Assembly: GCA_963989385.1 (NCBI GenBank)
Contig: OZ022513.1
Span: forward strand, 17,777,928-17,841,927
Length of the DNA stretch: 64,000 bases
Source of the DNA: Ctena decussata
Taxonomy: Eukaryota; Mollusca; Bivalvia; Lucinida; Lucinidae
Direction: 5' to 3'
Shown: piece after piece, positions 21,804 through 44,445 of the stretch
How the letters are laid out: each line of letters opens with the position of its first letter
Position numbering within the stretch: the stretch's first letter is position 1
Position numbers and translations under genes: made by a program
Notes under the pieces: model-generated
What the model was told of the DNA's origin: nothing
Seen by the model: the letters and a program-made list of their open reading frames with translations, nothing else
Database searches by the model: none

Positions 21804-22393
21804 CTAATGACGTTGCTTTTTTGTCACTGTATACATCTTGGGGTCCGGAGAGTTTCTGGAATGGCTACCATAACCGCTGTCAGGCGTGTCAGTACCTCGT
21901 TTGTGCATCTTTTTATCGCGCGTACATGCAGGTAAAAGCGGCGCACTGTCACAGTTAGCTTGTAAAATCGCCTGACGTAATGATGACAGAAGCTCGTGGG
22001 ACAAGTCTTGGGCCTCTTCTGTTGCTGTTTTCGGTAAGGGTACTTCGCAGCTGTTCTGATTTGGTTCAGATATCATGGCAGCTTGATTGAAACAATTGCA
22101 TGCAGCATCACTCAACGACATTGGATAGCTCGAGAAAGGAACAGTATTTGACGTCGTCACTGACGGCTGAACGTATATTTGTGATGGCGAGCTATCACTG
22201 TGGTTCTGAGCCGTACTCTCTGTCGCATGAGACAGACTGTCTTCAAGTGATCCATCCGGTGCGTCCAATTTTTGTGTCTTTCTTTGGCCATGTTCTAGTG
22301 CATGTGCTTCGAAAAAATAGGGGTCTGATTTTAGAGAAAATCTTCCTGCTGTGCCGAAGTTCCAAATATCGCATCCTAACCATTTGTTAACCG
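21804..22393 (-). CDS. Exon 8 (terminal): last trefoil strands and Ser-rich C-terminal tail
   Basis: 590 nt, entry phase 1, ending in TAG at 21804-21806, encoding residues 268-462. The acceptor is TTTCTGTTTCAG. The start, VNKWLGCDIWNFG (268-280), then RFSLK and PYFFEAHAL (291-299), fits the last trefoil repeat and the closing aromatic strand. IL-1 cytokines end about here. This protein continues for about 160 residues, rich in Ser/Thr/Asn/Gln, with a helix-prone stretch around DLSHELLSSLRQAILQA, a basic KKMHKR, a DSGYGS motif at 438-443 and a basic end KKQRH. DSGxxS is the phosphodegron form recognised by beta-TrCP in IkappaB and beta-catenin; function here is only suggested. A GACGT-rich MITE lies about 70 bp beyond the stop. 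Confidence 0.85.
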
Positions 22394-22454
22394 CTGAAAC
22401 AGAAATAGTAAAACAGTATTTTTATATTCTCGGTGCTTTTATTGAAAAGCCCTA

Positions 22455-22892
22455 TGGTTAAGCATTACTGGTCTGGCATTCAACACAGGCAACGAAGACA
22501 ACGTACAAGGAACCTGCTTGTTCTGTTCACCAGGATAAGTTTGTTTCAGAAGTATAGTCTCACGGACCATCCGACCCCCTACTCTTGAAGTAGGACTCAA
22601 AAGTTTTACTGAATTGATATGCATATTCAAGAAATGCTTGAAAACAATTTTTGGGCTACAACGACCAGCCAACGAATTGGTGAAAAACCTTATTCAAGCA
22701 CTGCATTTATACTTGACGGAATTTCTTCGAAGATCTGGCCTGACCAAGAGGTCTTACAAACTGCCGGGTCCGTAAGAATTATATTTTGAAATTAATGTAA
22801 GAAGTATGCGAAAACAATCGTGTTTTAAAGTACGTTGCTTCGTTGCCTGTGCTGAATGCCAGACCAGCGTGGTAATGCAGTTTATACTTCAA
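22455..22892. mobile_element. MITE-like element with about 55-bp inverted ends (intron 7)
   Basis: TACTGGTCTGGCATTCAACACAGGCAACGAAG near 22465 is mirrored by CTTCGTTGCCTGTGCTGAATGCCAGACCAG near 22840. Confidence 0.65.
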
Positions 22893-22952
22893 TAACTACA
22901 TCGGTTCACGCGACGTCATGACATCGTAGACGCTGTTAGTAGAAAGACTGGG

Positions 22953-23188
22953 GAGCCGCGACACGACAAAACCAACAATGTGGTTGTGCGCCCAGCGCAG
23001 ACTCAGATCAGCCTGGGCATCCGCCTAGTCTGATCAGACACTTCACTAAGCGCTTAAAGGGTAGCTAAGGGTCTAAGCTACCTCCATGCGGACAGCGGAG
23101 ACTCTGATCAGACTGGGCGGATGCCCAGGCTGATCTGAGTCTGCGCTGGGCGCACAACCACATTGTTGGTTTTGTCGTGTCGCGGCTC
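22953..23188. mobile_element. P-family palindromic MITE, full copy, TGGG target duplication
   Basis: Starts GAGCCGCGACACGACAAAACC and ends with its mirror. Almost the whole 236 bp folds back on itself through CAGCGCAGACTCAGATCAGC, CATCCGCC(C/T)AGTCTGATCAGA and a GGTAGCT centre. TGGG is directly repeated on both sides. Confidence 0.9.
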
Positions 23189-23272
23189 TGGGTATGAATG
23201 TTTTTCTGCTTTATCTGTAGCCCCTAACGTGAAAGTTTTGGTCAAATAATAGATAGGAAAGAATGTTAATAT

Positions 23273-23508
23273 GAGCCGCGACACGAGAAAACCAACAATG
23301 TGGTCGTGCGTCCAGCGCAGACTCAGATCAGCCTGGGCAGCCGCCCAGTTTTATCAGAGTCTTGGTTAAGTGCTTAAAGGGTAGCTAAGGGTTTGAGCTA
23401 CCTCCATGCGGATAGTGAAGACTCTGATCAGACTGGGCGGATGCCCAGGCTGATCTGAGTCTGCGCTGGGCGCACAACCACATTGTTGGTTATCTCGTGT
23501 CACGGCTC
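23273..23508. mobile_element. P-family palindromic MITE, full copy
   Basis: Same structure as 22953-23188 and only 84 bp away. Flanks ATAT/ATAA fit a 4-bp duplication with one change. Confidence 0.9.
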
Positions 23509-23519
23509 ATAAAAGAAAT

Positions 23520-23645
23520 GAACTTAATTTTTCCTGGTGTTTATCGAAGCATAAACTACATTGGGTCGCTAGAAAAGTTTACATGAACCCCTTACTTTGC
23601 ACGCGACCCAATGTAGTTTATACTTCGATAAACATCAGGAAAGTG
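23520..23645. repeat. Inverted repeat, arms about 45 bp
   Basis: TGGTGTTTATCGAAGCATAAACTACATTGGGTCG is mirrored by CGACCCAATGTAGTTTATACTTCGATAAACATCA. Confidence 0.7.
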
Positions 23646-23807
23646 AAATTCATTCCTAAATGAACAGTACATTGTTAGAAAAGGGTTGTTTGACTGAAGG
23701 GTAAGCCGTGGACCCAGAAGAAACGTCTCGAGATCAGTTGTCTTAACTGGATAGGCCTATACGGTTTGCCTTTTTTTCTCAAATACCTCTTTCCTTTATA
23801 ATATAGA

Positions 23808-24004
23808 TTCTTGATAGCTCAGTGGGATTAACGCTGGTCTGCTTAGCTAGCAGTCAAAGTTCGTATCTCGCTTGAGATGGAATCCTTTTCAACTGCACAC
23901 AGAGTTCCATTGCACACACCTTTTATAATCATCCTTACATTGGCTCGGTATGTCTGCAATACTGTTCAAAATGTCGTAAAACCGACTGTGTCATCCATTA
24001 ATAA
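23808..24004 (+). mobile_element. tRNA-headed SINE, copy c
   Basis: TGATAGCTCAGTGGGATTAACGC (A box region), CAAAGTTCGTATCTCG (decayed B box), body with GGAATCCTTTTCAAC and TTGCACACACC. Confidence 0.65.
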
Positions 24005-24135
24005 AGACAAGATAATTTTGATTAATACTCGGTGATAGTAGCGCAAAAGCAAAGTGTGCAGACCCTGACTAGACCGTTACAATGTTGGATTTTCGCGAAA
24101 CTTCGCACTCGCCAAAGTAAAATCTCCGTACTTAC

Positions 24136-24196
24136 TAAGAACTTTAAACGCCTGGCCATTTCCCGACTCTTTATACAGGAACCACTGTGGCGTTTC
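24136..24196 (-). CDS. Exon 7: short beta-trefoil exon
   Basis: 61 nt, phase 0 in and phase 1 out, encoding residues 247-266. The acceptor is TTTTTCCAG and the donor is TTA|GTAAGTAC, both strong. The peptide ETPQWFLYKESGNGQAFKVL aligns in pattern with the IL-1 segment of form R-F-x-F-x-x-S-x-S-G-x-x-x-x-F that precedes the Trp-Phe-Leu strand. Exons 6 and 8 cannot be joined directly without a frame break, and this exon supplies exactly the missing phase change. Confidence 0.8.
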
Positions 24197-24271
24197 CTGG
24201 AAAAATGTACATTGTTATAGAATCAATAAATACGAATTCACAGTAAAGACATCTTGTGTATCCGCAGTTGT

Positions 24272-24443
24272 CCCAGCAGGCGTATGACGTCGAATGACGT
24301 CGTGCTGACATCGATGCGACGTCGCCACGTCGCATCGTCTTCAATACGACGTTATTTCGACATTAAGTCGTATCGACATCATTTCGACGTCAAGTCGCAT
24401 CGACGTCAAAATGACGCCATTTTGATGTTATCTGCCCGCTGGG
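24272..24443. mobile_element. G-family MITE copy 3
   Basis: CCCAGCAGGCGTATGACGTCG to TCTGCCCGCTGGG, packed with GACGTC and TCGCATCGACGTC words in both orientations. Confidence 0.7.
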
Positions 24444-24740
24444 TGTGTGATTTAAGAAATTTGTATATTGCGCGTTACTATCGTTTCAGACCCAATATGT
24501 ATAAGTTAGTGGAACTTTTTTCTTTTTTTCTTCAGATAATAAAAATGTTTAAGAAATTTGTCGATATATGTATTTAAAGCTTTCAAACGGCGTGAACAAT
24601 TCGTTTTTGTTTAAAGTATTTAATAGACGAACAACTTTTGTACCTTCTCCATGTGTATCAATTTGAAATTAACTATGATGCTATTAAGATTTTCGAGTGC
24701 AATCAGTAAGATACGTTTGGTTTTAACTTATTATGTGTAT

Positions 24741-24848
24741 CCCAATGGGCACGGCATTGAACGGCACGGCATCGATGTTGATTCAGCGTCATAACGTTGA
24801 ATTAGCGTCGATTCAGTGTTAGTTTTTTTGGCAATGTGTGCCTGCTGG
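24741..24848. mobile_element. G-family-like MITE with CGTTGAAT words, copy 4
   Basis: CCCAATGGGCACGGC to GTGTGCCTGCTGG. The interior has ATTCAGCGTC, CGTTGAATTAGCGTC and GATTCAGTG. A related CGTTGA-rich fragment is at 4065-4150 and another at 29890-29985. Confidence 0.55.
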
Positions 24849-25056
24849 TATGACTTAGTAAGTTAGTTGTGTGTGAAGTGTTGTCAATTTTTTGAGGCAA
24901 TATTTCAACTGATTATTGTTTATCAGTCCCTATCACATATTTGCTTAATGTTTGTCGCGTATATGTTGTAACAGATGGGCCAGTTGGCCTAGTGTTGAAT
25001 AATAAATTCCGAAATTCCTGTGACTGTACATTCCACACATTTGCGCCAGTTGATGC

Positions 25057-25414
25057 CAGGCCCGGATCCAGACCACCACGTACTGGTGGGGCTATGGATA
25101 ACTGGTGGGGCTCGGAGGTTCCGAGATGTATGCATGTGGGAGGGGCTTGAAAATATATGACATAATTAGGGATCAATTGATGAGAATTTTTGATGTCATT
25201 CTTGCCTTGAAATATATATTGTGATATCTTATTAGAATCGCCTCGGCGAGGCGATTCTAATGAGAAGTCACAAGATAATCTAACCACATGGATAAATTAC
25301 ATCAAACTGTCTTCAGATACTCCTTATTTTCTGGATGCATACATATTATGTATAACACAGAGGCCCAGATGGCGGGGCTGAAGCCCCAAAGCCCACCCCC
25401 TGGATCCGGGGCTG
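25057..25414. mobile_element. V-family MITE (CAGGCCCGGATCCAG ends), GATGC target duplication
   Basis: 358 bp from CAGGCCCGGATCCAG to CTGGATCCGGGGCTG, with GATGC directly on both sides. A central palindrome TTAGAATCGCCTCGGCGAGGCGATTCTAA sits at about 25232-25262. Second copy at 30946-31315. Confidence 0.85.
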
Positions 25415-25919
25415 GATGCAGTTGGTCAGTTCCAACTAGAGTGACATTCAATCTCTGATTCTGCCGAATGCCGAATTGCATTCATTTTTGTTCAGTTCTG
25501 GCAATCATTTGCGGAAGCTGGAATATTTAATTTTCAAGACGGAATGGAATTGCGCGTTTAACCAGGCACGATTAGACGGCAGTCCATAGCAAAGATCCAA
25601 CTAATGTTTGCATACATGCAACTGGTACATGTAACCATGAAACATTTTAGCGTAAGTTTTGCCAGCAGTGTTGATCCAAATCAAACTATTATATGACCAA
25701 GATGTAACACACAATTTCATTGGCTGATTTGACGTTACGTTTCGGTCAATATTTTGCGATATTCACCGGCAAGTCAGTGGATATTACTTTTACGCTGACG
25801 TCATCGTATTTTCGTGACGTAACGTCTGATGTACGTTAATGTTAATGGCGTAACGTTGCGAGATTATACCATGTAGTACCGTCATAAATATCAAAGGAAA
25901 CTGTATTTAGAATAGTCAT

Positions 25920-26075
25920 ATAATAAAACAATTGTTGACCTTTATTTCGGTGAATATGCAGTTGTATTGACCTGCAAACAAAACATATTGACCTCCGCTT
26001 CGCGTCGGTCAATATGTTGTTTGCAGGTCAATAAAACTGCATATTCACCTCAACAAAGGTCAATAATTGTATAAT
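25920..26075. repeat. Foldback, arms about 70 bp
   Basis: TTGACCTTTATTTCGGTGAATATGCAGTTGTATTGACCTGCAAAC is mirrored after a short TCCGCTTCGCGTCGG centre. Confidence 0.75.
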
Positions 26076-26175
26076 ATTATATTTTAGGCGTACTCCTTGA
26101 TGCTGTTGTCTTTACATCCAGTTGAGATAAACTTCTGTAATGACGTTGGTAGCGGCTGTAGGACTAAAAATAATT

Positions 26176-26310
26176 GAGCCGCGACACGACATAAACAAAG
26201 TGGCATGTGCGCCCGGCGAAGACTCAATTCAGCCTGGACATCCGCCCAGTCTGAACAGTCTTCGCTCTCGGATTGGAGGTGGCTTAGACACATAGCTAGC
26301 CTTTAAAGAT
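26176..26310. mobile_element. P-family palindromic MITE, truncated copy
   Basis: Starts GAGCCGCGACACGACATAAACAAAG and stops after the GGTGGCTTAGACACATAGCTAGCC centre; the right half is missing. Confidence 0.8.
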
Positions 26311-26339
26311 TGTCTCCCTCGTTTATTTCATGTTTTCAG

Positions 26340-27360
26340 AAACAGATCTTTTAACAAAATTTCGTTAGACAATATGTAATAGTCTCATAATAAACCGTAC
26401 ACGTTTTGAGAAAATGCATGTTTTTTCGATAAATGAGGAATGGAAAACATTCTTCAAATTAAAATGCAAATTACCTATTTCATTTCCTCACGGCCAGTAA
26501 GAATATCGATTTTGACCGAACAGAACAGAACAGAACATATATGAGCCGCGACGCGAGAAAACCAACAAAGTGGTTGTGCGTCCAGCGCAGACTCAGTTCA
26601 GCCTGGGCATCCGCCCAGTCTGATCAGAGTCTTCGCTGTCCGCATGGAGGTAGCTTAAACCCTTAGCTACCCTTTAAGCGCTAAGTGAAGACTCTGATAA
26701 GACAGGGTGGATGTCCAGGCTGATCTGTGTCTGCGCATGGCGCACAACCACATTGTTGGTTTTCTCGTGTCGCGGCTCATATTTCATTTGACTTGTACAT
26801 AATACATCGTCACACAAAGTAACACAATATCAAAGGCATATAATGTCACGTATCAGAATACAGTTTATCAGAGTTTTTCAGAGTTTATAATAGAATTTTC
26901 TCGCACATTTACAGGTGCGTGAGGATGCACCATATCAAGTAATTTAGCACAAGGTTAATAAGGTTGTTAAATAAATTGTCTAAAACTACGAGAACTATGC
27001 AAAAAGACAGAATAGCGTACATGTGTATTAAAGTAGTTGAAAGAACTTACATATCGTTGTTTAAAATATTTGTTCTCCTTTTTAAAGCTAGGAGACCACG
27101 TTTGTCATGTGGTCATGTACAGGTATTTTTCTTATTCGTGCACGTGATTGTGACGTATGAATAAATTATTTTTGTCCAATAATGCGATTTCAAGCGCGGT
27201 CCGCGATCGTTTAAAAATTGATCTTATTTTTTGTTTTTAAGTCACTTTTATCAAATATTATTATCCAAACTCTATTTCAAATGTATACTTAGAGCCTTTC
27301 GGAGGTATTGCATGAAATATTACATCAAATCATTTTTTGTTATTATTATAAAGGGAGTAA
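26340..27360 (-). repeat. Dispersed repeat R1 copy 2 with a 576-bp insertion
   Basis: 26400-26517 and 27094-27360 together match the reverse complement of 14630-15000. GACC is present at both edges of the intervening 26518-27093 block, which holds a P-family MITE, so this block looks like an insertion with a 4-bp duplication. Confidence 0.6.
26543..26778. mobile_element. P-family palindromic MITE, full copy, ATAT target duplication
   Basis: GAGCCGCGACGCGAGAAAACC to its mirror, ATAT on both sides. Confidence 0.9.
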
Positions 27361-27369
27361 ATCTTTAAG

Positions 27370-27603
27370 CCCACAGCGAAGACTCTGATCAGGCTGGGCG
27401 GATGCACAGGCTGAGCTGAGTCTTCGCATGGCGCATCTGCCCAGTCTGAGCAGTCTTCGCTGTCGGCTTGGAGGTAGCTTAGACACATAGCTACCCGATA
27501 AGCGCAAAGCGAAGACTCTGATCAGGCTGGGCGGATGCCCAGAATGATCTGAGTCTTCGCTGGGCGCACATGCCAATTTGTTTGTTTTCTCATGTCGCGA
27601 CTC
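27370..27603. mobile_element. P-family palindromic MITE, rearranged copy next to exon 6
   Basis: Contains two copies of the GAAGACTCTGATCAGGCTGGGCGGATG block and ends CATGTCGCGACTC. The left terminus is lost. It ends 22 bp from the donor of exon 6. Confidence 0.8.
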
Positions 27604-27624
27604 AGTCAATGAGGCACCCCTTAC

Positions 27625-27773
27625 CTGAACTGTTACTGCAACGCCCCCATCATCAGAAACATGCATGTAGCCTTTTCGCCTCGGATCTGCAGGATCTTGC
27701 TTGTACAAACATGCGTCGTAAGATGTTTCACCCGTCCCTTCGTCGAGCTCGCATTTTGTCTTCAGGCAGATGT
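27625..27773 (-). CDS. Exon 6: middle beta-trefoil segment
   Basis: 149 nt, entry phase 1 and exit phase 0, encoding residues 198-246. The acceptor is TTTTTAACCAG and the donor is TTCAG|GTAAGG. The peptide begins ICLKTKCELDEG and contains KGYMHVSDDGG (230-240) and VAVTVQ (241-246), the second trefoil pseudo-repeat. Three cysteines (199, 204, 218) could pair or stay free. The opposite strand carries a 107-codon ORF that is a shadow. A palindromic MITE ends 22 bp beyond the donor, inside intron 6. Confidence 0.8.
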
Positions 27774-27879
27774 CTGGTTAAAAATAAATTAGAGCTGCAC
27801 CACGCTAGGAAGGTACTGTACGTACATTGTATATGTACTAGAAAAGAGCCCGCGCAAGCGCGGAAATATTTCATGATGG

Positions 27880-28640
27880 TCAAGTTTATATAAAAAAGTG
27901 AGTTTTAATTTTTCAATGTAAATGGCCTTAGGCCCATGTGAAGATATGACCTTTACCATGAATACTCACTAAAGTTTCATTGACCTAATTAGTTGTCTGC
28001 ATCTACAAACTTTCAGGTAGCAGACTGCATTGTTTCTAAAAAAAATCAACTTTTTTCACTTTTTCCTATAGAAAAACCTAAGTGACTCAAAAGTTGACCT
28101 TGCCGCAAACAGATCAAGGTCATCCCAGGGTCATCATTTATATAAATTTTGTTGAGCTTTTGAGTCCTTGATGCGACATGCTAAGTTTCAAGATCATAGG
28201 ATTTGTGGTTCTGGGGGAGAATTGGTTGATTTGATGCTTAACGTCCACGGTAAACAGCTAAGGTCATGTCGGGACGGTCAGTTAACCTAACCACACTATT
28301 CCTGGGCAGGCTTAGACCTCTTAAGCGGTTAACCAGTAGTACTGTACTAAGTGCACATACTTTCGCCAGTAACTGACAACTGCCCTTCTTGAATCAGCGG
28401 AAGGAGAAACGAAAGTATGTGGCCAGACCGGGTTTCGAACCCAGGACCTCTGACTTATGTCAGGTGCCCTACCGATTGCGCTACGCGGCCCGGCGTGGTC
28501 CTGGGGAGAAGATTTTTGAAATTTTTTACCATAATAAATGTTTGCCATCTTGGTTATGTGACCTGTCCTAGGTATTTTTTTCTGAAAAAATTGGGTCCTG
28601 GAACGTTTTGGGGGAAAATATTCAAGCCCTCTGAAGACTA
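27880..28640. repeat. Unit of a GGTTCTGGGGGAGAA-type repeat, interrupted by a SINE
   Basis: ATGACCTT, AAGTTTCATTGACC, TTTCAAGATCATAGGATTTGTGGTTCTGG resemble the unit of the 17100-19275 element. The SINE at 28222-28494 interrupts it. Confidence 0.5.
28222..28494 (-). mobile_element. S1-family tRNA-derived SINE, minus strand
   Basis: Tail TTGGTTGATTTGATGCTTAACG at the left, tRNA-like head at the right, read on the minus strand as GGGCCGCGTAGCGCAATCGG and GGGTTTCGAACCC's complement region. Near-direct repeats GTGGTTCTGGGGGAGAA and GTGGTCCTGGGGAGAA flank it. Confidence 0.8.
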
Positions 28641-30445: not shown

Positions 30446-30613
30446 TGTATTTTTCCTCATCATCTGATTCGGACACTTCAAATCGGACTTGTCCATCAAC
30501 AATAGCAAGATAGAGTTGTGTGCCGGCCACTTTCATTCTATAAATGTGTGTGTCTTTAAATGTGGACCCATAACAGTTCTTATAGTGTAGGTCTCGCACA
30601 GACGGCTCGTCAG
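30446..30613 (-). CDS. Exon 5: first beta-trefoil segment
   Basis: 168 nt, phase 1 in and phase 1 out, encoding residues 142-196 plus split codons at both ends. The acceptor is TTTATTTAAG and the donor is ACA|GTAAGT. It contains the first trefoil pseudo-repeat: THIYRMKV (162-169), TQLYLAI (172-178), then DGQVRFEV (180-187) and an acidic run SESDDEEK. This resembles the N-terminal strands of IL-1 cytokines (a (F/Y)R-I/M strand, an aromatic-Leu strand, a short Q-L/V turn) and the exon ends just after EEK, close to where I recall the IL-1 receptor antagonist exon ending. An FGF-like reading is the main alternative. Identification rests on pattern, not on a database search. Confidence 0.8.
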
Positions 30614-33239: not shown

Positions 33240-34828
33240 GGCTGTTATCTCTGTTCTATTTCTATTTTATCCCATAACCTTACTAGGTCGTTGGGGCACC
33301 ACAGATGACTTCGAAACAATCCCTTTCCACCTTGTCCTGTCTTCAGCTGCCCTAGTTGAGCTGGCAAAATCCATCCCTGTCCACTCCTTAATATTGTCTT
33401 CCCACCTCTTCTTCTGTCTATCTCTTCTTTTTCCTTTCACTGTGCCCTGTAGAATCGTTTTTGCTAAACCAGAAGACCTTAAGACGTGGCAAAACCACCT
33501 TAGTTTCCGTTTCTTGACCAGGAGTTCATCGTATTCTCCAATGGCTGCTTGGATCTTCCTGCGAACATTTTCACCTTTGACCAAAGAGATATGTTGTTAT
33601 CTCTCCAAATTGTTTCAGCTTAGTAAGAGCTGAAGTGACTTGTGCAATCCTTGAGAGGACCTCCTGTTTTGAGCCATCATCCGAGACAACTTCTCCAAAG
33701 TATTTGAAGCTTATTACGGTACCCAGCTTCTGACCGTTTACCTTGATCTCCCTCTGGATGCCATCTGCGCTGTTCGTCATCAGTTTGGTCTTCTCAGCAC
33801 TTATTTCTATCTTATACCTTGTGCAGGTTTGGTCGAGACTTTCAACTAGAGCTTCTAGTTCCTGCTCTTCCTCAGCTTGAGCGTCTATGTCATCGGCAAA
33901 CCGCAGATTGATAATCTTTCTGCCACCTATGCTTACCTTTCCGTCATCTTCTTCCAGAGCATCAGACATGATCCGTTCGAGAAAAATGTTGAAGAGGGTG
34001 GGTGACAGAAGACATCCTTGTCTTACTCCAACTGTTGTACTGAACCATTCTCCTGTGCTGCCATTTATCAGGACTGCACTTGTAGCCCTGCGTATAGCCG
34101 CTCAATGGTGCGAACTAGATTTGCACCGATATTGTACTTTCGCATGGTGGCCCGTAAGGCTACATGCCATACATTGTCAAAGGCTTTTTTGAAATCAATG
34201 AAGACATGGTACAGATTCTGCTGATGTTGGAAATACTTTTCACACAGGATTCTAAGGTTGAAGATCTGTTCTGTGGTGCTCCTGCCTGCTCGGACTCCAG
34301 CCTGTTCCTCAGCGATTATCTCCTCGGCTTGTTGTTTAAGCCTGTTCAAGATGACTTTCAGCTGCGACTTTGCTTGAATGACTGATGGGGCTTATGGTTC
34401 CGTAGTTCTGGCAGAACTGTAGGTTGCCCTTTTAGTAGGGAGCGTAATAATCAGCGACTGAGTCCTTGGGGTAGGCCATTCTCCTGTTCTCCAGATCCTG
34501 TTACAGATATCTGTTAAAACATCAATCGTGGTCTCCCCGCCAGCTTGAACAAGTTCTGCTGGTATATTATCAACTCCGGCAGATTTCCTCTTCTTTAGTG
34601 CTGCTACTGCAATCTCAACTTCCTCACGAAGAATCGGTTGTTGATCATCTTCAGGGGGCTGATTGCAGTCCAGAACCGCATTGTCACCGTAAGTCTCATG
34701 GTTGTATAGTTCTGAGCAATATTCTGTCCATCTGCTGAGAATCTCTTGTTCTTCTGTAAGGCATTTCCCAGACTTGTTCTGGATAGTTATCTACCCTGTT
34801 TCTCTGAAGTTAGATCCTTCGCCGTTAT
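33240..34828 (-). pseudogene. Inactive RTE-like LINE reverse transcriptase (intron 4)
   Basis: On the minus strand, fragments read in order: KKRKSAGVDNIPAELVQ, EEQAGVRAGRSTTEQIF, HVFIDFKKAFDNVWH, then RFADDIDAQAEEE with the FADD catalytic motif, then SAEKTKLM, SFKYFGEVVSDDG, and a C-terminal KLRWFCHV ... DRQKKRWEDNIKEWTG ... RTRWKGIV. Several frame changes separate these and part of the palm (between 33969 and 34068) is out of frame. The 5' end is cut at the P-family MITE at 34831. I place it near the RTE clade from the C-terminal R-W-x-D motif; the exact clade is uncertain. It lies in an intron in the same orientation as the host gene. Confidence 0.8.
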
Positions 34829-34830
34829 TT

Positions 34831-35066
34831 GAGCCGCGACACGAGAAAACCAACAAAGTGGTTGTGCGCCAAACGCAGACTCTGATCAGCCTGGGCATCC
34901 GCCCAGTCTGATCAGACTCTTTGCTAAGCGCTTAATGGGTAGCTAAGGGTCTAAGCTACCTCCATGCGGACCGCGAAGACTCTGATCAGACTGGGCGGAT
35001 GCCCAGGCTGATCTGAGTCTGCGCTGGGCGCACAGCCACATTGTTGGTTTTCTCGTGTCGCGGCTC
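34831..35066. mobile_element. P-family palindromic MITE, full copy, ATTT target duplication
   Basis: GAGCCGCGACACGAGAAAACC to its mirror, ATTT on both sides. Confidence 0.9.
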
Positions 35067-35139
35067 ATTTAGAGTGTAGTAAATGCCAAAATACCTTTAC
35101 TTTCAGACAAAGCAACTCTATTATAATTTGCCTCCCTTC

Positions 35140-35375: not shown

Positions 35376-35466
35376 ATGTAAATTGCCAGTGGTAAGGTTC
35401 TGGAACGAGGATAGCGCTCGTGCTTATCCATTCCCATCGCTCGTCAGTACAACGTCGAAGAACGAC
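35376..35466 (-). CDS. Exon 4: last PDZ strand and linker
   Basis: 91 nt, phase 0 in and phase 1 out, encoding residues 111-140. The acceptor is a T-rich tract ending ATATTTAG. The donor is ACAT|GTACGT, chosen because it gives the phase 1 that exon 5 needs; an alternative GT four bases on would break the frame. The peptide starts VVLRRC, completing the final PDZ strand after TRFEL, then runs through a Trp-rich linker (WEWIST, PYHWQF) toward the beta-trefoil. The opposite strand carries an 80-codon ORF that I regard as a shadow. Confidence 0.7.
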
Positions 35467-37008: not shown

Positions 37009-37062
37009 GACGTCAGTAGTATAGGATGCCACTCTGGCGCATCCTATACTATGTACTGACGT
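37009..37062. repeat. Hairpin with TGACGTCAGTAGTATAGGATGC arms (intron 3)
   Basis: ACGTCAGTAGTATAGGATGC and GCATCCTATACTATGTACTGACGT around a 9-nt loop. Confidence 0.65.
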
Positions 37063-37114
37063 AATTGGTATAGATTCATTGACTGACGTGAAGCTAAAAA
37101 TATCCGTGACTTAC

Positions 37115-37229
37115 CAATTCAAACCTAGTTTTGGAGTCAACTGGGACTCTGCTGAAAATGTCAAGGACGTTATTGTGATCTACTCTTGGAGCAAACTTTT
37201 GATTTATCAGCACCAGCTGGTCCCCCGAC
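37115..37229 (-). CDS. Exon 3: C-terminal half of the PDZ domain
   Basis: 115 nt, entry phase 2 and exit phase 0, encoding residues 73-110. The acceptor is TTCTTTTCCAG and the donor is TTG|GTAAGTCAC, both strong. Joined to exon 2 the first residues read GIRSGDQLVLINQ, the classical PDZ G-D-x-(I/L)-x-x-(V/I)-N segment. It is followed by a helix-like VDHNNVLDIFSRV and a last strand beginning TRFEL. The completion of one domain across a phase-2 junction is strong evidence that exons 2 and 3 belong together. The peptide most likely binds a C-terminal or internal peptide ligand; no specificity can be assigned. Confidence 0.85.
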
Positions 37230-37734: not shown

Positions 37735-38175
37735 TTTCAACTATTTTTATAAAGGGGAACAACTTTTGCGACTTCTTGTTTACTTCCCTGGATGATGAAA
37801 CCCTTCCAAAAAGGGACCAACTCTTAGAGAAAAGAATTTGCTCCAACAGGAGCATATTCTTTTCTCTAAGTTGGTTAGTTGTTTCGGACTTAACGACCCT
37901 TTGTGACAATATTTCAGTCAATATCGGGCCGTCTCCCAGAGAGAGGGAGAAAGAAGAGAGAAGTGACAGACGACAGAAAAGAATGTTCAAACAACCCCCA
38001 TCCGCACCTACCGAAAGCACAGTAGGCCCTTGCCCTACTACTCTTCAAATCAGTAGGACGCCCCGGCACTGGAAGTTACACGCAGCACCATCGCTGCAAC
38101 CGACCGCCCCCTTTTCTCTAAGAGTTGACTATAATGAGAAAAGAGGGCAAATGAAAATGACAGGGTTGCTTCCCT
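37735..38175. repeat. F-family repeat, longer copy (intron 2)
   Basis: AGGGGAACAACTTTTGCGACTTCTTGTTTACTTCCC matches 3298-3335, followed by the GAATTTGCTCC hairpin at 37820-37880 and a mirrored end TCTCTAAGAGTTGACTATAATGAGAAAAGAGGG. Confidence 0.6.
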
Positions 38176-38263
38176 GAAATTATACCCATTTACTTTGAAG
38201 TGCATATAGATTCCTCATATGGGCGATACAAAAAAGGAAACACTTCAGTACTTTTTTTAGACA

Positions 38264-38527
38264 CCAGGGGCCGTATTCATGAAACGACTTAAGTGGTTGC
38301 TATGCTGTTGCTAAGGCTAAATTTCTTTGAAGGAGATTACCTACAACTATGAAATTTGCTCTGGAGGAACAGTACCTACAACTATGAAATTTGCTCTGGA
38401 GGAACAGTCTTACAAAGACTGTTCCTCCATACCAAATTTCATAGTTGTAGGGAATCTCCTTTATAGATATTTTGCCTTAGCAACCGCATAGCAACGACTT
38501 AAGTCGTTTTATGAATACGGCCCTAGG
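38264..38527. mobile_element. MITE with CCAGGGGCCGTATTCATGAAACGACTTAAG ends
   Basis: Mirrored right end CGACTTAAGTCGTTTTATGAATACGGCCCTAGG. A 36-bp block (TACCTACAACTATGAAATTTGC and GGAGGAACAGT) is duplicated in tandem in the left arm only, so the stem has an extra loop. Confidence 0.8.
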
Positions 38528-38722
38528 ATCCCCAGTAGTCAGTTTGTTACTCGCTGGCTTGCTGATTTGGCCGTCCCAGGTTCGACCTCCGCTTGAGGCA
38601 GAAATCCTTTCAACAGGAAAAAGGGTTCCATTGCACACATACTTTCAGTTTCACCCTCCAATTGTCCTGATATGACTAAATACTGTTGAAAAGGATGTAA
38701 AATCGCAAGTTATTCATGCATC
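38524..38722 (+). mobile_element. tRNA-headed SINE, copy d, abutting exon 2
   Basis: CCAGGTTCGACCTCCG (B box), AGAAATCCTTTCAAC, TTGCACACATACTTTCA, TGATATGACTAAATACTGTTG. The tail ends about 7 bp from the exon 2 donor of the opposite-strand gene. Confidence 0.65.
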
Positions 38723-38728
38723 CAATAC

Positions 38729-38913
38729 CTTATCCCCATCTTATCTGCCACGCCATTTTTCACCACATCTGTGAAGAAGTGCTCATGATATCCTTCTTTT
38801 ATCTTCTGCTTGCTTTCTGATTTAACTCTGGCCCCAAATCTGTTTCCAAGACGGTCATCTTTGGTTGGCTGGGTATCCTGTTGAAGAATGGTCGTGGAAA
38901 TGCCGGCAGCTTT
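38729..38913 (-). CDS. Exon 2: N-terminal half of the PDZ domain
   Basis: 185 nt, phase 0 in and phase 2 out, encoding residues 11-71 and two bases of Arg72. The acceptor is CTTTCAG and the donor is AAG|GTATTG, a weaker match than the other donors. The peptide has the start of a PDZ fold: a loop with RFGARV (35-40) in the carboxylate-binding position, then FFTDVVKNGVADKMGI (56-71), which matches the usual strand, then x-x-G-x-A-x-x-x-G-(I/L) before the next exon's G-D. A second acceptor 36 nt downstream (TTCAACAG|GAT) keeps the frame and would shorten the exon by 12 residues. A palindromic MITE starts 22 bp upstream in the intron, and a SINE tail ends about 7 bp beyond the donor. Confidence 0.8.
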
Positions 38914-38934
38914 CTGAAAGTACCTTTTGTAAAT

Positions 38935-39167
38935 GAGCTGCGACACGACACAACCAACAAAGTGACATACATGTATGCGCCCAGCGAAGACAAATCAGGC
39001 TGGTCATCCGCCAGGTCTAATCAGCCCTCGCATGGAGGTAGCTTCAAGCCTTAGCTACCCTTTAATCGGTCAGCAAAGACACAGATAAGCCTAAGCGGAT
39101 GTCCAGGCTGATCTGGGTCTTCGCTGGGCGCACATGCCATTTTGTTAGTTTTGTTACGTCACGGCTC
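38935..39167. mobile_element. P-family palindromic MITE, diverged copy (intron 1)
   Basis: GAGCTGCGACACGACACAACC to ACGTCACGGCTC. It starts 22 bp from the exon 2 acceptor. Confidence 0.8.
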
Positions 39168-39428
39168 ATATTACATGCGCATACAATGTGGTAATCGTGT
39201 GTTGTTAAAACGAAACGATAAGTGATCGAGCACCGTGTGATCGAGTCGCATCAGATATATTCTGAAAAAGAGTTTTTCACTTATTTTATCCATTTCCGAC
39301 AACTTGTACATGTTTGCATAAAAGGTTAAGGTTCCAGGTATCCTAGTAGGCGTAGAGTCAGTGGGCGTTAGGGACCCACTGTTTCTTGGGCGCAGACAAC
39401 CCTACACCGCATTCTCTGACTCTATAAA

Positions 39429-39656
39429 CAAGGGCGTAGCTACCTATACGGCAAATACGCAAGTGCGTATTGAAATTTTGTCAAAATTGACAAAATTTCA
39501 AAACGCACCTGCATATTTGCATGCTGAATATTTATAAATTAGACAAGATTTCAATACCAATTAACAAGGTGGCTGAAATATTGAGCTTTCCCCTCAAGAA
39601 GTAGAGAATAAAACATGGTTGTGCGTATTATGAAAATGCCCCTAGTTACGCCCCTG
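39429..39656 (+). mobile_element. H-family MITE copy 6
   Basis: CAAGGGCGTAGCTACC to CCTAGTTACGCCCCTG; flanks ATAAA/ATTAA. Very close to copy 2 at 4232. Confidence 0.85.
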
Positions 39657-39699
39657 ATTAAAGGTACACCTTTATGCTTGGTTGACAGACAGAGATCTC

Positions 39700-40065
39700 C
39701 ATTCGCCGTCAGTCGAACGGCGATTCGAGGTGCCGCCTGGCGAACGGCGGCTCGAGTCTCCGTTTGGCGAACGGCGAGTCGAACCCGCGACCTTCTGCAC
39801 CATAAACCAATTGAGCCGCGACACCAGAAAACCAACAATGTGGTTGTGCGCCCAGCGCAGACACAGACCAGCCTAGGCATCCGCCCAGTCTGATCAGAGC
39901 CTTCGCTGTCCGCATGGGGGTAGCTAAGGGCAGTCTCTGATCAGCTGGGGCGGATGCCCAGATCTGAGTGCGCTGGGCGCACAACCACATTGTTAGTTTT
40001 CTCGTGTCGCGGCTCAATTGCGAGCGCCTCTAACCAGTGGAGTACGCGCCTCTCTTCTTATGCAT
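39700..40065 (-). mobile_element. tRNA-like SINE head split by a P-family MITE
   Basis: On the minus strand ACTGGTTAGAGGCGCTCGC (A-box region, about 40020-40040) and GGTCGCGGGTTCGACTCGCC (B box, about 39770-39795) are parts of one tRNA-like unit once 39813-40015 is removed. Confidence 0.6.
39813..40015. mobile_element. P-family palindromic MITE, AATT target duplication
   Basis: GAGCCGCGACACCAGAAAACC to its mirror with AATT on both sides. The right arm has an internal deletion of about 30 bp. Confidence 0.85.
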
Positions 40066-40096
40066 AAGTAGCGGAAAAAAAGCAGTTCTAAATTAA

Positions 40097-40172
40097 CCCA
40101 GCGGGCACATGACGCCGAAATCACGTCATACGTCGACGAGACTTCATCACGTCGCATCGACGTCGGTACGAC
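40097..40172. mobile_element. G-family MITE, truncated copy
   Basis: CCCAGCGGGCACATGACG start, GTCGCATCGACGTCGGTACGAC, then no right terminus. Confidence 0.5.
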
Positions 40173-40618
40173 TAAGGTGCACGGTTTTGGCATGAAAAAC
40201 AACTTTGTTAACGAAACTGGATATTTATTTAAAAGGGACCTACATGTATTTTTGCTTTAGAAATAGGCCGACACGTTCTCATAAACTTTCATGAAATTGT
40301 GCGGAGGTGTTTCATATAACTTTCAATATTTACACTTGCCACTGACTTCCCATAGGTGAACCCTTTAGAGCAACTGGCTTCATACACCGATGAAGGCCAA
40401 TTGATCATGTGACGTTGTCGTCAAGTGACGTCTTATGTAAACAAACGTCTTGATTGGTTCTTGTAACGTTCGATTGACGCCATGTCCGGGCGACGGCTGT
40501 TTGACGTTATGACTGAACACGTCGTTACTAACTTTTCTTCGATCCATATTTTGCCTGTTCTACACTAAATTACCACGAAAACGGCACAGAGAGGTTCACA
40601 AATAAAGTGTAAATATAA

Positions 40619-40770
40619 GAATAAAAATTTGATTTTTCAGCGTTCATCGTGTGAAGAAGCCAGTGGTCGTCGCTAAAATTCTACAAGAAGCGCTTCGCGC
40701 TTCATGGAATTTTAGCTCCGCCCAATGGCTTCATCACACGATGAACGCTGAAAAATCAAATTTCAATTCT
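40619..40770. repeat. Foldback, arms about 70 bp
   Basis: AATTTGATTTTTCAGCGTTCATCGTGTGAAGAAGCC and its mirror around AAGCGCTTCGCGCTT. Confidence 0.75.
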
Positions 40771-40962
40771 TAATTGATAAATATTCAAATTATGTGTTTA
40801 CTACACGACAAAAAAAACAAGAATCGAAAATTTGCAACTAAAAAACTATCATCGTGTATTTTTTCACGTGACAGTGTCTCATACTGCGAGATTAACCACA
40901 AATAATGACTAATTCACATATTGTTGTTTGTTATGCATGTTGGACAAACATTAATCTAAATG

Positions 40963-41152
40963 AATGACTTGCAATTTTACGTCCTTTCCAACAGTATTTC
41001 AGCCATATCAGTACGATGGAAGGATGATAAATGAAAGGCTGTGTGCAATGAACCCCGTTTACGATCGACCAGATTTCCGCATTCGGTAATCAATTTTGGG
41101 ATCGCTAGATCAGCAGGCCAGCGTTTAACCCACTGAGCTACCAGGGCTCCTA
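40963..41152 (-). mobile_element. tRNA-headed SINE, copy e
   Basis: GACTTGCAATTTTACGTCCTTTCCAACAGTATTTCAGCC at the tail side and CCAGCGTTTAACCCACTGAGCTACCAGGGCTCC (minus-strand A box) at the head. Confidence 0.65.
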
Positions 41153-41234
41153 ACTTAAATCTAAATAAGAGCTTAAATTGGATAAACTTGTCAAAATCAT
41201 ACTCTGCCGTTGCCAAGAATAGTAAATATATTAG

Positions 41235-41920
41235 AGGATCTTACACGAGTGGTCATTTTATATGAACATTATGAAACGAGGCTTCTGCGAGTTTCATAGA
41301 TTTCATGTTAAATGACCACGAGTGTAAGATTCTGTTTATCATACGTTACTTGTACGCGACAAAGTGTTATATTACACCTATGGCCATACGATTTTTATGA
41401 CACGACGTTATCCACTGAATAACAGCGACGTCATATGATAAAGTCAGATAGCAAACTATCATAAATGTCATTATGACGTCTCAAACGGCGGGAGGCCGAC
41501 AAATGTCGTTTTCTTCATCTGACAGAGCAAAATAAGCGTTCAAATCGTGAAATTCCCTAGCTGTTTGAACAACATCTCAAGTTTGCGTTTTTATTCACCT
41601 ACCGGGCCGTATCATTATTTATTTATCATATGACGTTGCTGTTATTCAAAGGATAACGCCGTGTCATAAAAATCGTATGATCACACGTGTAATAAGACTT
41701 TGGCGCGTACACATAACGTCATTGACAACGCCCATGTCAACAATGCGTTTTCTTATTAAAATGATGTTCAGTTTGAAGGCGTTACATGTACGATCACATT
41801 TTAAATGGTCATATGACAAACAGAATCTTACACTCGTGGTCATTTCATATGAAATTTATGAAACTCGCCGAAGGCTAGTTTCATAAATTTCATATGAAAT
41901 GACCACTCCTGTAAGATCCT
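41235..41920. mobile_element. 686-bp foldback element
   Basis: AGGATCTTACACGAGTGGTC at the left and GACCACTCCTGTAAGATCCT at the right. Mirroring continues for about 230 nt (GTATGATCACACGTGTAATA; GCCATACGATTTTTATGACACG). Each end has its own smaller hairpin centred on CGAGGCTTCTGCGAG or CGCCGAAGGCTAG. A partial relative is at 21280-21560. Confidence 0.8.
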
Positions 41921-42326
41921 TTATTTACATGACTTTAACTGACGTTGGGTTGCAGCCCTGGAATAAGCATTTGGTTTTCATTTCTATAAACGCCAGGGCC
42001 ATTCTGTTTTACGCGGAATGACGTCAAAATACATGTCACTATGAATGAATTAAAATCTACAAGAGTTCCTTCAAGGGCAGAGAAAACATTCAAAACAAGT
42101 AACTTGGGTCATGCGTCAAAGTTTCGGCTATTCAAGCCTCATCAGTGACTCTGACATGATCCGGCGACAAAGCCAGCGAAAACGTACTGTCATTTCTCAG
42201 TTTTGATAAGGCAGTCGTTTCAAAGACTGGTAATATCAGAGAGGGTCCGAATGAATTAAAAGCAAAGTCTAAACCAATCTTTTTTTCAGAATATTTCCTC
42301 TGATCTCAGAGGACAAAAAATAAGAT

Positions 42327-42513
42327 GAGCCGCGACACGAGAAAATCAAGAATGTGGTTGTGCGACCAGCGCAAACTCAGATCAGCTTGGGCGTTCGCCC
42401 TGTTTAACCAGACTCTTTGTTAAGTGCTCAAAGAGTAGCTGAGGGTCTAAGCTACCTACATGCGGACAGCGAAGACTCTGATCAGACTAGGCGGTTTTGT
42501 CGTGTCACGGCTC
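42327..42513. mobile_element. P-family palindromic MITE, right arm deleted
   Basis: GAGCCGCGACACGAGAAAATC start; after ACTCTGATCAGACTAGGCGG it jumps directly to TTTTGTCGTGTCACGGCTC. Confidence 0.85.
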
Positions 42514-42884
42514 AAATATTATCTGCACTATGTATGATGTACGGGGAGACTTTTTACGTTTGAACACAATACCAGTTGCAGTGAAGTAAAATCAAAATCT
42601 ATAACTTAGAGTTCCTTCCAGGGCACATAAAACATTCAAAACAAGTAGCATGGGCCTTTTATACTTTTCCTTTTTATGATTTTCAGCATTTTCGAAGACT
42701 TTCTCATTGGATCATAATAGAAATTGCAAGAATATCGATCATGTTTGTTTGTTTCATTGCATTAGCATTTGTAGGGTCCGTCTAAAGAAGTGTGAACACT
42801 CGGTTGCCGCTTAATGTCCTAACAAATTCCTGGGACCAATGGCAAATGTTAATGCACGAAAAAGCATGTTTAATGCCTACATGT

Positions 42885-43090
42885 TTATGTTTGTGGGGTC
42901 TCGCTGGTGGCATACAAAGTTGGCAAAGACAAAATATGATGTTTGTGGGTGTCTCGCTGGTTTCATACGAATTTGGGAAACTACTTAAGACAAAACTTTA
43001 TGTTTATCCTCGCCGATGTTATACGAAGTTAACAAAGACAAAATGCGACTGATGATGTTTACGATGTTTCATCGGTGGTATACGATGTTT
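42885..43090. repeat. Outlying block of the 54-bp satellite (intron 1)
   Basis: Three to four diverged units with ATGTTTGTGGGTGTCTCGCTGG and CATACAAAGTTGGCAAAGAC, as in the main array at 45630-47060. Confidence 0.65.
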
Positions 43091-43127
43091 ACAACGTCGG
43101 ATCTGTCGGCGGTTAGCGTTAAGGGTG

Positions 43128-43414
43128 CACTGTAAAAAATCCATAGATTTACGGTCCAGCTGCCAGCCCATTTCCTATTATATTTTACGGGCGTCCGTAA
43201 ACTTTGGCAATATCGTCGCGCAGAGCTGGGTATAATTTCGGTCATACAGTCCTTCAACATTATAAAGGTGTTTTCGAGTGCGGTTAATATAACTGTGCCA
43301 TAGCAAGATTTCAAAATATGTTGTACAGGCAGACGCCCGTACAAATATCGGGCAATGGATTGGCAACTGGTTGCCTGGTAATCTACCGTAAAATCTACGG
43401 AAATGTTTACAGTG
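43128..43414. mobile_element. CACTGTAAAAA-type MITE, copy 3
   Basis: CACTGTAAAAAATCCATAGATTTACGG to CCGTAAAATCTACGGAAATGTTTACAGTG, with mirrored GGGCGTCCGTAAAC parts. Confidence 0.7.
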
Positions 43415-43517
43415 TGTAGAACCAAAGGCTTAGTTTGACCTTAAGGATATGTTACATGTATTTCTAAGCTGTCAAAAACGGATAATGTTGTAAGACAAGA
43501 AATTTAACAGCATCTAG

Positions 43518-43712
43518 AGTGGAGTCGGGTAACTTCGGACAGCGGGTAAATTGCATACAATTGCAAACAGTGAAAATCCAGATGAGCCGTCTCATCAGGA
43601 TTTTTACTGTTTGCCCAATTAATTTTTGTTTTAGTTCTAAACAACTGACATATAAAGGAAACAATGCCAGTGTCCGAAATTACCCGCTGTCCGAAGTTAC
43701 CCGACTCTCCTC
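43518..43712. mobile_element. U-family MITE, TA target duplication
   Basis: GAGTGGAGTCGGGTAACTTCGG to CCGAAGTTACCCGACTCTCCTC, TA on both sides, as for Tc1/mariner-type MITEs. Second copy at 61688-61904. Confidence 0.85.
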
Positions 43713-43983
43713 TACTAGAACAGAAAACTAACAGTGTTGTTCGAGAAATGAACACACATGAAAGCATTGCCTTGATAGGTCGACATCAGTAAACTATACT
43801 AAAACCAACTTCTAACTCACTACTTTTTTTAATTAAATAACTCAGTCATTTTTGTTATTGACTAGAAATAAAGTTCTGAAGCATATTTTGTTATCATGGT
43901 AGTCAACAATATTCTAAACCTGTATAAGGCCATTTACATTGCATTTAACATTACAATTTATAAACTGTCTACTCCCGTAAAAC

Positions 43984-44302
43984 GCCGGGCCGCGTAGCGC
44001 AGTCGGTAGCGCGTCTGACTCAACAGTCAGAGGTCCCGGGTTCGATACCCGGTACGGCTACTTACTTTCGTTTCACCGTCCGCTGATTCAAGAAGGGCAG
44101 TTGTCAGTTACTGGCGAAAGTATTGTGCATTTAGTACTACTTAGGACGTCTAAGCCTGCCCCAATCGGAACTCCTCGGCCTATTCCACACACGGACCAAT
44201 CACAGAATTAGCCCAGCGGTGTTCCGAATGAGCTTTCCCAGGAATTAGACTAAATAGTGTGGTTAGATTAACTGACCGTCCCGACATGACCACAGCTGTT
44301 AG
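43984..44302 (+). mobile_element. S1-family tRNA-derived SINE with an insertion
   Basis: GCGTAGCGCAGTCGGTAGCGC, GGTCCCGGGTTCGATACCC, then TTCAAGAAGGGCAGTTGTCAG. The match to 11064-11340 is interrupted at 44161-44229. Confidence 0.8.
44161..44229. mobile_element. T-family deletion derivative inside the SINE
   Basis: CCAATCGGAACTCCTCGGCCTATTCC and AGCGGTGTTCCGAATG are the two ends of the T family joined with only about 25 bp between. Confidence 0.65.
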
Positions 44303-44415
44303 CAATAACACAACAGCCAGTACATATTTTCACCGAATGAACCCAATAAGGAAATAAATGCAAAACCGGCTGAACGAGCAATAAAATTATATTTCAGTGT
44401 AACAATGTCACTTAC

Positions 44416-44445
44416 CCATTGTGGGGCGAACATGGCCGTTGTCAT
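44416..44445 (-). CDS. Exon 1 (start codon, 10 codons) of the PDZ/beta-trefoil gene
   Basis: The ATG at 44445-44443 opens MTTAMFAPQW and runs straight into a strong donor (TGG|GTAAGT), leaving phase 0 as exon 2 requires. An in-frame TAG lies about 14 codons upstream and there is no intervening ATG, so this is the first available start. A second ATG five codons later is an alternative. It is the weakest exon of the model because it is short and has no recognisable domain. Its support is the perfect donor, the right phase and the upstream stop. The 5' UTR probably continues toward 44500. A different first exon farther upstream is possible. Confidence 0.5.

What the first reader, a model, noticed from the sequence alone, without database searches (positions are those of the whole stretch)
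21804..44445. A gene joining a PDZ domain to an IL-1/FGF-like beta-trefoil, with a long C-terminal tail
Seen directly: eight exons on the minus strand with GT-AG borders, seven phase-compatible junctions, and two domains completed only across splice junctions (PDZ across exons 2-4, trefoil across exons 5-8). Inference: the trefoil resembles IL-1 more than FGF because of WFLYKESGNGQAF followed by KWLGCD and PYFFE, close in pattern to the last strands of IL-1 cytokines. IL-1 family members are generally regarded as vertebrate proteins, and I know of no PDZ + IL-1-type fold fusion.
Basis: partly seen in the sequence, partly recalled or inferred. Interest (0 to 1): 0.92.

Follow-up and report, generated by a model that had tools for sequence, protein, structure and literature searches.

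The report
IL-1-like gene with PDZ domain
An animal genome, probably a clam's, carries a small cluster of genes joining a protein-docking (PDZ) domain to a domain laid out like the inflammation signal interleukin-1, a family described so far from vertebrates; the gene is real, but the fold and the kinship still need proof.

Summary
The gene is real. Eight minus-strand exons (21804-44445) join to 462 codons with GT-AG borders. Relatives match each of exons 2-8, and one uninterrupted protein crosses all their junctions; exon 1 has no support. Three paralogues on the same contig share the intron phases. The PDZ is firm.

The trefoil is plausible, not proven: AlphaFold2 was unusable there (pLDDT 22-41); Pfam, PDB, profile and repeat tests were negative or not significant. 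For it: a 12-strand pattern read by eye, an F-x-[FY]...F-x7-W-x2-C block spaced like IL-1 motifs, and intron phases II,0,I,I,0, the IL-1beta series, with similar sizes of two trefoil exons.

"No known PDZ + IL-1 fusion" is wrong: fish nIL-1F is one. Best reading: an IL-1-like gene of nIL-1F architecture outside vertebrates. IL-1 signature and Pfam model are not met, so I do not file it as an IL-1 family member.

The parts
44416..44445 (-). putative exon 1 (MTTAMFAPQW), intron phase 0 after it
   Evidence: open frame and GT donor; no homologue support, so uncertain
38729..38913 (-). exon 2: start of PDZ (L-G-x-x-F-G loop), intron phase II after it
   Evidence: Pfam PDZ residues 32-84
37115..37229 (-). 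exon 3: PDZ core (SGDQLVLIN...DHNNVL), 115 nt, intron phase 0 after it
   Evidence: 115 nt in the three paralogues too
35376..35466 (-). exon 4: last PDZ strand and conserved WEWISTSAILVPEP, intron phase I after it
   Evidence: the corresponding strands of P0002 are modelled with confidence
30446..30613 (-). exon 5 (168 nt): linker and putative trefoil strands beta1-beta3, intron phase I after it
   Evidence: compare pacu IL-1beta exon 5 = 168 nt (PMC7687281)
27625..27773 (-). exon 6 (149 nt): putative strands beta4-beta7, intron phase 0 after it
   Evidence: compare pacu IL-1beta exon 6 = 137 nt
24136..24196 (-). exon 7 (61 nt): putative strands beta8-beta9 (QWFLYKESGNGQAFKV), intron phase I after it
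21804..22393 (-). exon 8: putative strands beta10-beta12 (NKWLGCD...YFFEAHAL) and the C-terminal tail with the stop
22284..22393 (-). part of exon 8 that completes the putative trefoil (to about residue 303)
   Evidence: strand map read by eye from the alignments; inference
21864..21881 (-). DSGYGS motif (residues 438-443) in the tail; DSGYG also in P0001, P0006 and paralogue A, DSGYH in paralogue B
   Evidence: fits the beta-TrCP degron form DSGxxS (recalled), not tested

Best explanation
This is one of a cluster of related genes that share descent with the PDZ + IL-1 cytokine genes known from fish (nIL-1F). Shown: an intact, conserved spliced gene for a PDZ domain, a conserved linker, a conserved domain of about 160 residues and a tail of about 160 residues. 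Inferred: the second domain is an IL-1-type beta-trefoil. Proposed working: the protein is made without a signal peptide and kept in the cell as a precursor; the PDZ docks it on the C-terminal tails of membrane or junction proteins; after damage or cutting in the linker the trefoil is released and acts as agonist or antagonist on Ig-TIR receptors of the IL-1R kind, as the C-terminal part of trout nIL-1Fm antagonises IL-1beta; the DSGYGS tail lets kinases and ubiquitin ligases set how long the precursor lives. Every step of the working is inference from the relatives.
For: (1) Intron phases of the window gene are 0 | II,0,I,I,0 | I, and II,0,I,I,0,I recurs in the three paralogues (exon 7 of paralogue B came from a pattern scan of my own). 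IL-1beta coding introns are typically II,0,I,I,0, with the twelve strands in the last three exons (PMC4880838, passages). Only 2 of 140 orderings of this gene's own seven phases give that series in that register, 6 of 140 in any register. (2) The exon with the linker and beta1-beta3 is 168 nt (165-174 in the paralogues) against 168 nt in pacu IL-1beta; the beta4-beta7 exon is 149 nt (140-143) against 137. (3) Same two domains as lumpfish nIL-1F (352 aa, PDZ and IL-1 domain, seven coding exons; PMC7144542); P0006 is 351 aa. (4) F-x-[FY]-x(8)-F-x7-W-x2-C in 7 of 8 proteins examined (not P0007, whose C-terminal part does not align), at the place and spacing of the IL-1 'F-F' and 'FES-PG-WF' motifs (PMC12108812); about 0.03-0.1% of shuffles of each of the 7 pieces hold it (pattern loosened after seeing the sequences). 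(5) With single recalled sequences as targets, 4 of 9 IL-1 members, 1 of 7 FGFs and 0 of 2 fascin pieces beat all 40 shuffles.
Against: No Pfam IL-1 hit (at E up to 1, at E up to 10, where HMMER's filters drop most matches above 0.1); the strict and relaxed IL-1 signatures match 0 of 8 proteins; AlphaFold2 leaves the region at pLDDT 22-41 in both jobs and the fold search shows no trefoil that I recognise among its 50 listed rows; comparison with an IL-1 profile is not significant (E 0.073 with 7 sequences, 0.13 with 10), the fascin profile scores higher, and the best single match (IL1RN) lies one repeat out of register; with 10 sequences only 2 of 9 IL-1 members beat all 40 shuffles, against 1 of 7 FGFs; three-fold self-similarity is not significant (20 of 200 shuffles); peptides translated from lumpfish nIL-1F primers match no better than chance (19 frames against the window protein, lowest single p 0.029). 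In paralogue B the W of the block is Y. I noticed the phase agreement before I tested it. By recall FGF genes share the two trefoil introns (I,0), so only II,0,I upstream and the PDZ point to IL-1.
Confidence: 0.62

Rival explanations
1. A PDZ + beta-trefoil adaptor of the wider FGF/IL-1 cytokine-like trefoil superfamily that arose on its own and works only inside the cell, as the intracellular FGFs (FHFs) do, with the PDZ and the trefoil both used as docking modules.
For: Trefoil introns I,0 are shared by FGF genes as well (recalled); the beta7-beta8 loop is short as in FGFs (by eye); FGF7 beats all 40 shuffles; no IL-1 signature.
Against: The upstream phases II,0,I and the PDZ fit IL-1beta and nIL-1F; no Pfam FGF hit and the recalled FGF signature matches 0 of 8.
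Confidence: 0.2
2. The second domain is not a beta-trefoil but another fold, so the likeness to IL-1 is chance pattern matching.
For: Two AlphaFold2 jobs failed to build a confident domain and the PDB fold search listed PDZ-containing proteins; no significant profile or three-fold-repeat signal.
Against: The two unsure models place strands at 9 and 10 of the 12 expected positions; the alignments held 7 rows and 13 rows (6 proteins and 7 exon pieces), so failure is weak evidence; intron phases and the fish PDZ + IL-1 precedent would be coincidences.
Confidence: 0.15
3. Gene-model artefact or dead gene.
For: Exon 1 has no support; the frame of paralogue C ends early in the tail.
Against: Intact frame, conserved junctions, relatives without introns and three paralogues with the same exon plan.
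Confidence: 0.03

Closest known systems
Fish nIL-1F (nIL-1Fm), PMC7144542 and PMC4929537 (passages)
   Same: PDZ domain plus IL-1 domain; lumpfish protein 352 aa (P0006 here is 351); seven coding exons, as exons 2-8 here
   Different: The fish protein has an IL-1 family domain recognised by InterPro and the IL-1 signature; ours matches neither Pfam IL-1 nor the signature and has a tail of about 160 residues. Fish nIL-1Fm lacks a signal peptide; for ours exon 1 is uncertain. I had no fish nIL-1F sequence to align
IL-1beta
   Same: coding intron phases II,0,I,I,0; sizes of the two trefoil exons; spacing of F-F and F-x7-W-x2-[CST]
   Different: no PDZ (recalled); an extra phase-I intron here splits the last trefoil exon between beta9 and beta10; signature absent here; vertebrates only according to PMC9020223 (passages)
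FGF / intracellular FGF (FHF)
   Same: trefoil-type strand pattern; by recall the same two introns (I,0) around beta4-beta7
   Different: no PDZ, no II,0,I introns upstream (recalled); no FGF signature or Pfam match here
PDZ domains of NHERF3/PDZK1 and Shank
   Same: among the best PDZ rows by sequence profile and by model
   Different: parts of scaffolds without a trefoil (recalled)

Membership tests
IL-1 family | Pfam IL-1 model PF00340 | tested here: not met
   no hit in 5 trefoil pieces and 2 full proteins at E up to 10, nor in the window protein and its trefoil piece at E up to 1
IL-1 family | IL-1 signature (strict form with the P position recalled from PROSITE; relaxed form as printed in PMC7687281) | tested here: not met
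   0 of 8 proteins for either form; a looser block F-x-[FY]...F-x7-W-x2-C in 7 of 8
IL-1 family | 12-stranded beta-trefoil | tested here: inconclusive
   strand pattern fits by eye; AlphaFold2 not confident
IL-1 family | coding intron phases II,0,I,I,0, trefoil in the last exons | tested here: met
   one extra intron splits the last trefoil exon
IL-1 family | no signal peptide | not tested
   exon 1 uncertain; no prediction run
IL-1 family | binds an IL-1R-type receptor | not testable with these tools
   binding needs an experiment; a receptor search was not run
nIL-1F (PDZ + IL-1) | PDZ domain and IL-1 domain in one gene | tested here: inconclusive
   PDZ shown; IL-1 domain not shown by any model; content and size agree with PMC7144542
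PDZ domain | Pfam PDZ model above its cut-off; X-Phi-G-Phi loop | tested here: met
   25.9 bits against 23.2; R-F-G-A at residues 35-38 read by eye from the alignment
FGF family | Pfam FGF model and FGF signature | tested here: not met
   no hit; recalled signature 0 of 8

The most novel reading that the evidence does not exclude
The IL-1 lineage is older than vertebrates: the last common ancestor of molluscs and vertebrates already had a PDZ + IL-1 gene with introns II,0,I,I,0; fish nIL-1F kept that form, and the prodomain of IL-1beta, coded by the exons with phases II,0,I, is the eroded remnant of the PDZ half.
Probability: 0.35. Interest if true: 0.93.

Novelty: new variant of a known kind. 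Interest (0 to 1): 0.76.

Why it matters
Two 2022 papers place the birth of IL-1 at the origin of (jawed) vertebrates and say that no IL-1 gene is known in invertebrates, although, by the first of them, IL-1R-like receptors are (PMC9020223 and PMC9382457, passages). A PDZ + IL-1-like gene cluster in an invertebrate would give those receptors a candidate ligand, date the family to before the protostome-deuterostome split, and suggest where the prodomain and exon plan of IL-1beta come from. It also makes the question testable: one structure and one alignment with fish nIL-1F would decide it.

Tried and rejected
Direct fold proof failed: two AlphaFold2 jobs (and 57/61) gave a usable PDZ but not the second domain. 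PDB sequence searches with one sequence, three rows and six rows gave no trefoil protein that I recognise (one search lists PDZ proteins almost only, the others 1 and 4 rows with E 0.26 or worse). Profile comparison with small IL-1, FGF and fascin sets was not significant; its power is low, since IL-18 and IL-33 left out of the IL-1 set also scored weakly. Three-fold self-similarity: 20 of 200 shuffles reach it. Translated lumpfish nIL-1F primers (9 of the 10 in the table; R356 left out as it overlaps R354): no match beyond chance, so the tempting likeness of SSEVMLVP to the window's STSAILVP (p 0.22) is dropped. Paper searches: (ten, all used); none of the rows listed is an invertebrate PDZ + IL-1 gene by its title or abstract start, but searches listed only 20 of 351, 35 and 56 papers, the library holds open-licence PMC papers only, and I saw listings, abstract starts and passages, no paper whole. 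A lectin-type trefoil was thought of and not tested.

Not tested: receptors of the IL-1R kind, FGF genes and their introns in this genome, more distant paralogues; the genome search answered once and was otherwise busy. The protein collection may hold few animals, so the seven relatives say nothing about how widespread the family is.
Full report
What is there. On the minus strand of window 21804-44445 eight exons join to 462 codons with seven GT-AG introns and no stop. The product reads: N-terminal segment, PDZ domain (Pfam PF00595, 25.9 bits against a cut-off of 23.2, residues 32-84), a conserved stretch WEWISTSAILVPEP, a linker, a domain of about 160 residues, and a tail of about 160 residues. 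The genome is 1.66 Gb in 245 contigs and the window is C16:17777928-17841927 of it. No tool names the organism. I take it for a bivalve because of repeat and retrotransposon families known to me (recall); no call confirms it. That Pfam sees no IL-1 domain here, while InterPro sees one in fish nIL-1F, speaks against a jawed fish.

Is it a gene? Yes. Seven relatives came out of a collection of 5.8 billion proteins in three searches (2 hits, 6 including those two, 5 of which one new). Five of the seven (P0002-P0006) carry both the PDZ part and the complete second domain; P0001 is N-terminally cut; P0007 has the PDZ and the first half of the second domain, after which it no longer aligns. P0001 and P0006 sit on contigs of 1,195 and 1,797 nt and cross the junctions of exons 4-8 and 2-8, so I take them for spliced sequences. 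Each of exons 2-8 is found separately by tblastn with at least one relative at E 0.0004 or better. Exon 1 has no support. P0007 and paralogues A and C have a different, long 5' part; P0007's does not find a match in the window.

It belongs to a local family. The one answered whole-genome search, with P0002, gave six places, all on contig C16: two are exons 2 and 3 of the window gene, four belong to three paralogues (the tool scores only its best candidates, so more may exist). From 150 kb fetched around them I read paralogue A (17883171-17846134, minus), B (17754636-17737828, minus) and C (26080255-26104324, plus). All four genes have intron phases II,0,I,I,0,I after exons 2 to 7; exon 3 is 115 nt in all four; exon 5 is 168, 174, 165 and 174 nt; exon 6 is 149, 143, 143 and 140; exon 7 is 61, 61, 64 and 61 (window, A, B, C). 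Exon 7 of B was found by a pattern scan that I wrote for it. The frame of C ends early in the tail, so C may be decaying.

What is the second domain? My strand map, read by eye from the alignments, is: beta1 HIYRMKVAG, beta2 QLYLAIVDG, beta3 QVRFEVSE, beta4 KYNICLKTK, beta5 SYDACLYKQ, beta6 KGYMHVSDD, beta7 VAVTVQ, beta8 QWFLYKESG, beta9 QAFKVL, beta10 NKWLGCD, beta11 GRFSLK, beta12 YFFEAHAL. AlphaFold2 does not decide: with P0006 leading 7 rows mean pLDDT is 41 and the region stays at 22-40; with P0002 leading 13 rows (6 proteins and 7 window exon pieces) the blocks of the PDZ and following strands lie at 58-93 but those from residue 151 on at 25-41. The unsure models put strands at 9 and 10 of the 12 expected places. 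Foldseek against the PDB lists PDZ-containing proteins in the 50 rows shown of 568, none with E below 0.001. Pfam finds nothing in 5 trefoil pieces at E up to 10 apart from two sub-threshold DUFs. PDB sequence search with six rows gives four rows at E 0.37 or worse. So the trefoil is an inference.

Why IL-1. First, the introns. A turtle IL-1beta paper states that IL-1beta coding introns have the typical arrangement II,0,I,I,0 and that the twelve strands lie in the last three exons, similar to known IL-1 family members (PMC4880838, passages). The window gene reads 0 | II,0,I,I,0 | I. Two of 140 orderings of its own seven phases give that in the same register, six of 140 in any register. In pacu IL-1beta the fifth and sixth exons are 168 and 137 nt (PMC7687281, passages); here the corresponding exons are 168 and 149. 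By recall, human IL1B has 171 and 131 and the introns lie at beta4 and after beta7, about where they lie here; also by recall, FGF2 has introns of the same phases at those two places. So the trefoil introns speak for the FGF/IL-1 superfamily, and the upstream II,0,I for IL-1. I saw the agreement before I tested it.

Second, the fish precedent. [quoted passage not shown] its clade includes ghost shark and coelacanth and the authors call it likely ancestral (PMC7144542, passages). Trout nIL-1Fm lacks a signal peptide and a recombinant of its last 169 residues inhibits IL-1beta-induced expression (PMC4929537, passages). I could not obtain a fish nIL-1F sequence: peptides translated from its published primers do not match beyond chance.

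Third, the motif. F-x-[FY]-x(8)-F-x7-W-x2-C occurs in 7 of 8 proteins at beta8-beta10, where IL-1s have 'F-F' and 'FES-PG-WF' (PMC12108812, passages); shuffles of each of the 7 pieces hold the searched form in 0.03-0.1%. The pattern was loosened after seeing the sequences, and paralogue B has Y for W. The strict and relaxed IL-1 signatures match none of the 8.

Fourth, profile comparison is weak. Against a nine-member IL-1 profile the score is 16.97 where the 95th percentile of 100 column shuffles is 16.76 and the maximum 23.8; against FGF 14.0 and fascin 19.15, where the 95th percentiles are 19.0 and 17.4, so fascin passes its own by more; IL1RN alone gives 25.57 against a maximum of 25.42, in a register shifted by one repeat. 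Single sequences: 4 of 9 IL-1s, 1 of 7 FGFs and 0 of 2 fascin pieces beat all 40 shuffles; with the paralogues added 2 of 9, 1 of 7 and 0 of 2.

How it may work. See the best explanation. The PDZ keeps an X-Phi-G-Phi loop (R-F-G-A, residues 35-38) and a histidine (His90) where class I PDZ domains have theirs (rule recalled, position read by eye), so S/T-x-hydrophobic C-termini are the expected ligands. The tail holds TPDSGYGSHSRNS near its end; DSGYG recurs in P0001, P0006 and paralogue A. DSGxxS is the beta-TrCP degron form (recalled); of the 8 proteins only the window's fits it. Release and receptor binding are inferred from nIL-1Fm.

Is it new? PDZ + IL-1 is known in fish. [quoted passage not shown] The rows listed by my ten paper searches show no invertebrate case. 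So, if the host is an invertebrate and the domain is a trefoil, this may be the first such gene described; because the IL-1 signature and Pfam model fail I do not file it in the IL-1 family as defined now.

Noticed in passing
22953-23188, 23270-23511, 26539-26782, 34830-35067 and other copies: Fold-back element with arms of 94-112 nt, 84-93% complementary, scattered through the window; 14 matches to its core in 64 kb, none expected; the four named lie in introns of the gene.
   Followed up: partly
52771-55679 (-): Non-LTR retrotransposon broken into several frames: reverse transcriptase above the Pfam cut-off in 53944-54642, below it in 52771-53940, endonuclease-like hit just below the cut-off in 55278-55679.
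   Followed up: partly
33574-34101 (-): Reverse transcriptase fragment inside intron 4 of the gene.
   Followed up: partly
9244-9711 (+): Frame with a PHD finger in what looks to me like retrotransposon sequence.
   Followed up: no
56684-59188; 17618-19010; 45618-46967; 47084-47706: Long tandem arrays: 129-bp unit x19.5, 168-bp unit x8.4, 53-bp unit x25.3, 25-bp unit x25.2.
   Followed up: no
20774-21121: AT-rich array of a 22-bp unit (TGATATCACAAAATCGATTTAG, 15.6 copies, 61% matches) about 680 bp behind the stop codon of the gene.
   Followed up: no
43988-44061, 11069-11142, 28420-28490: Three tRNA-like sequences (Rfam tRNA); ARAGORN finds two of them and gives no amino acid; perhaps SINE heads. 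The first lies in intron 1, the third in intron 5.
   Followed up: no
L011 (C16:17884152 region) and L017 (C16:26079212 region): Paralogues A and C have a 5' stretch like the N-terminal 220-240 residues of P0007, not found with P0007 for the window gene or paralogue B.
   Followed up: partly
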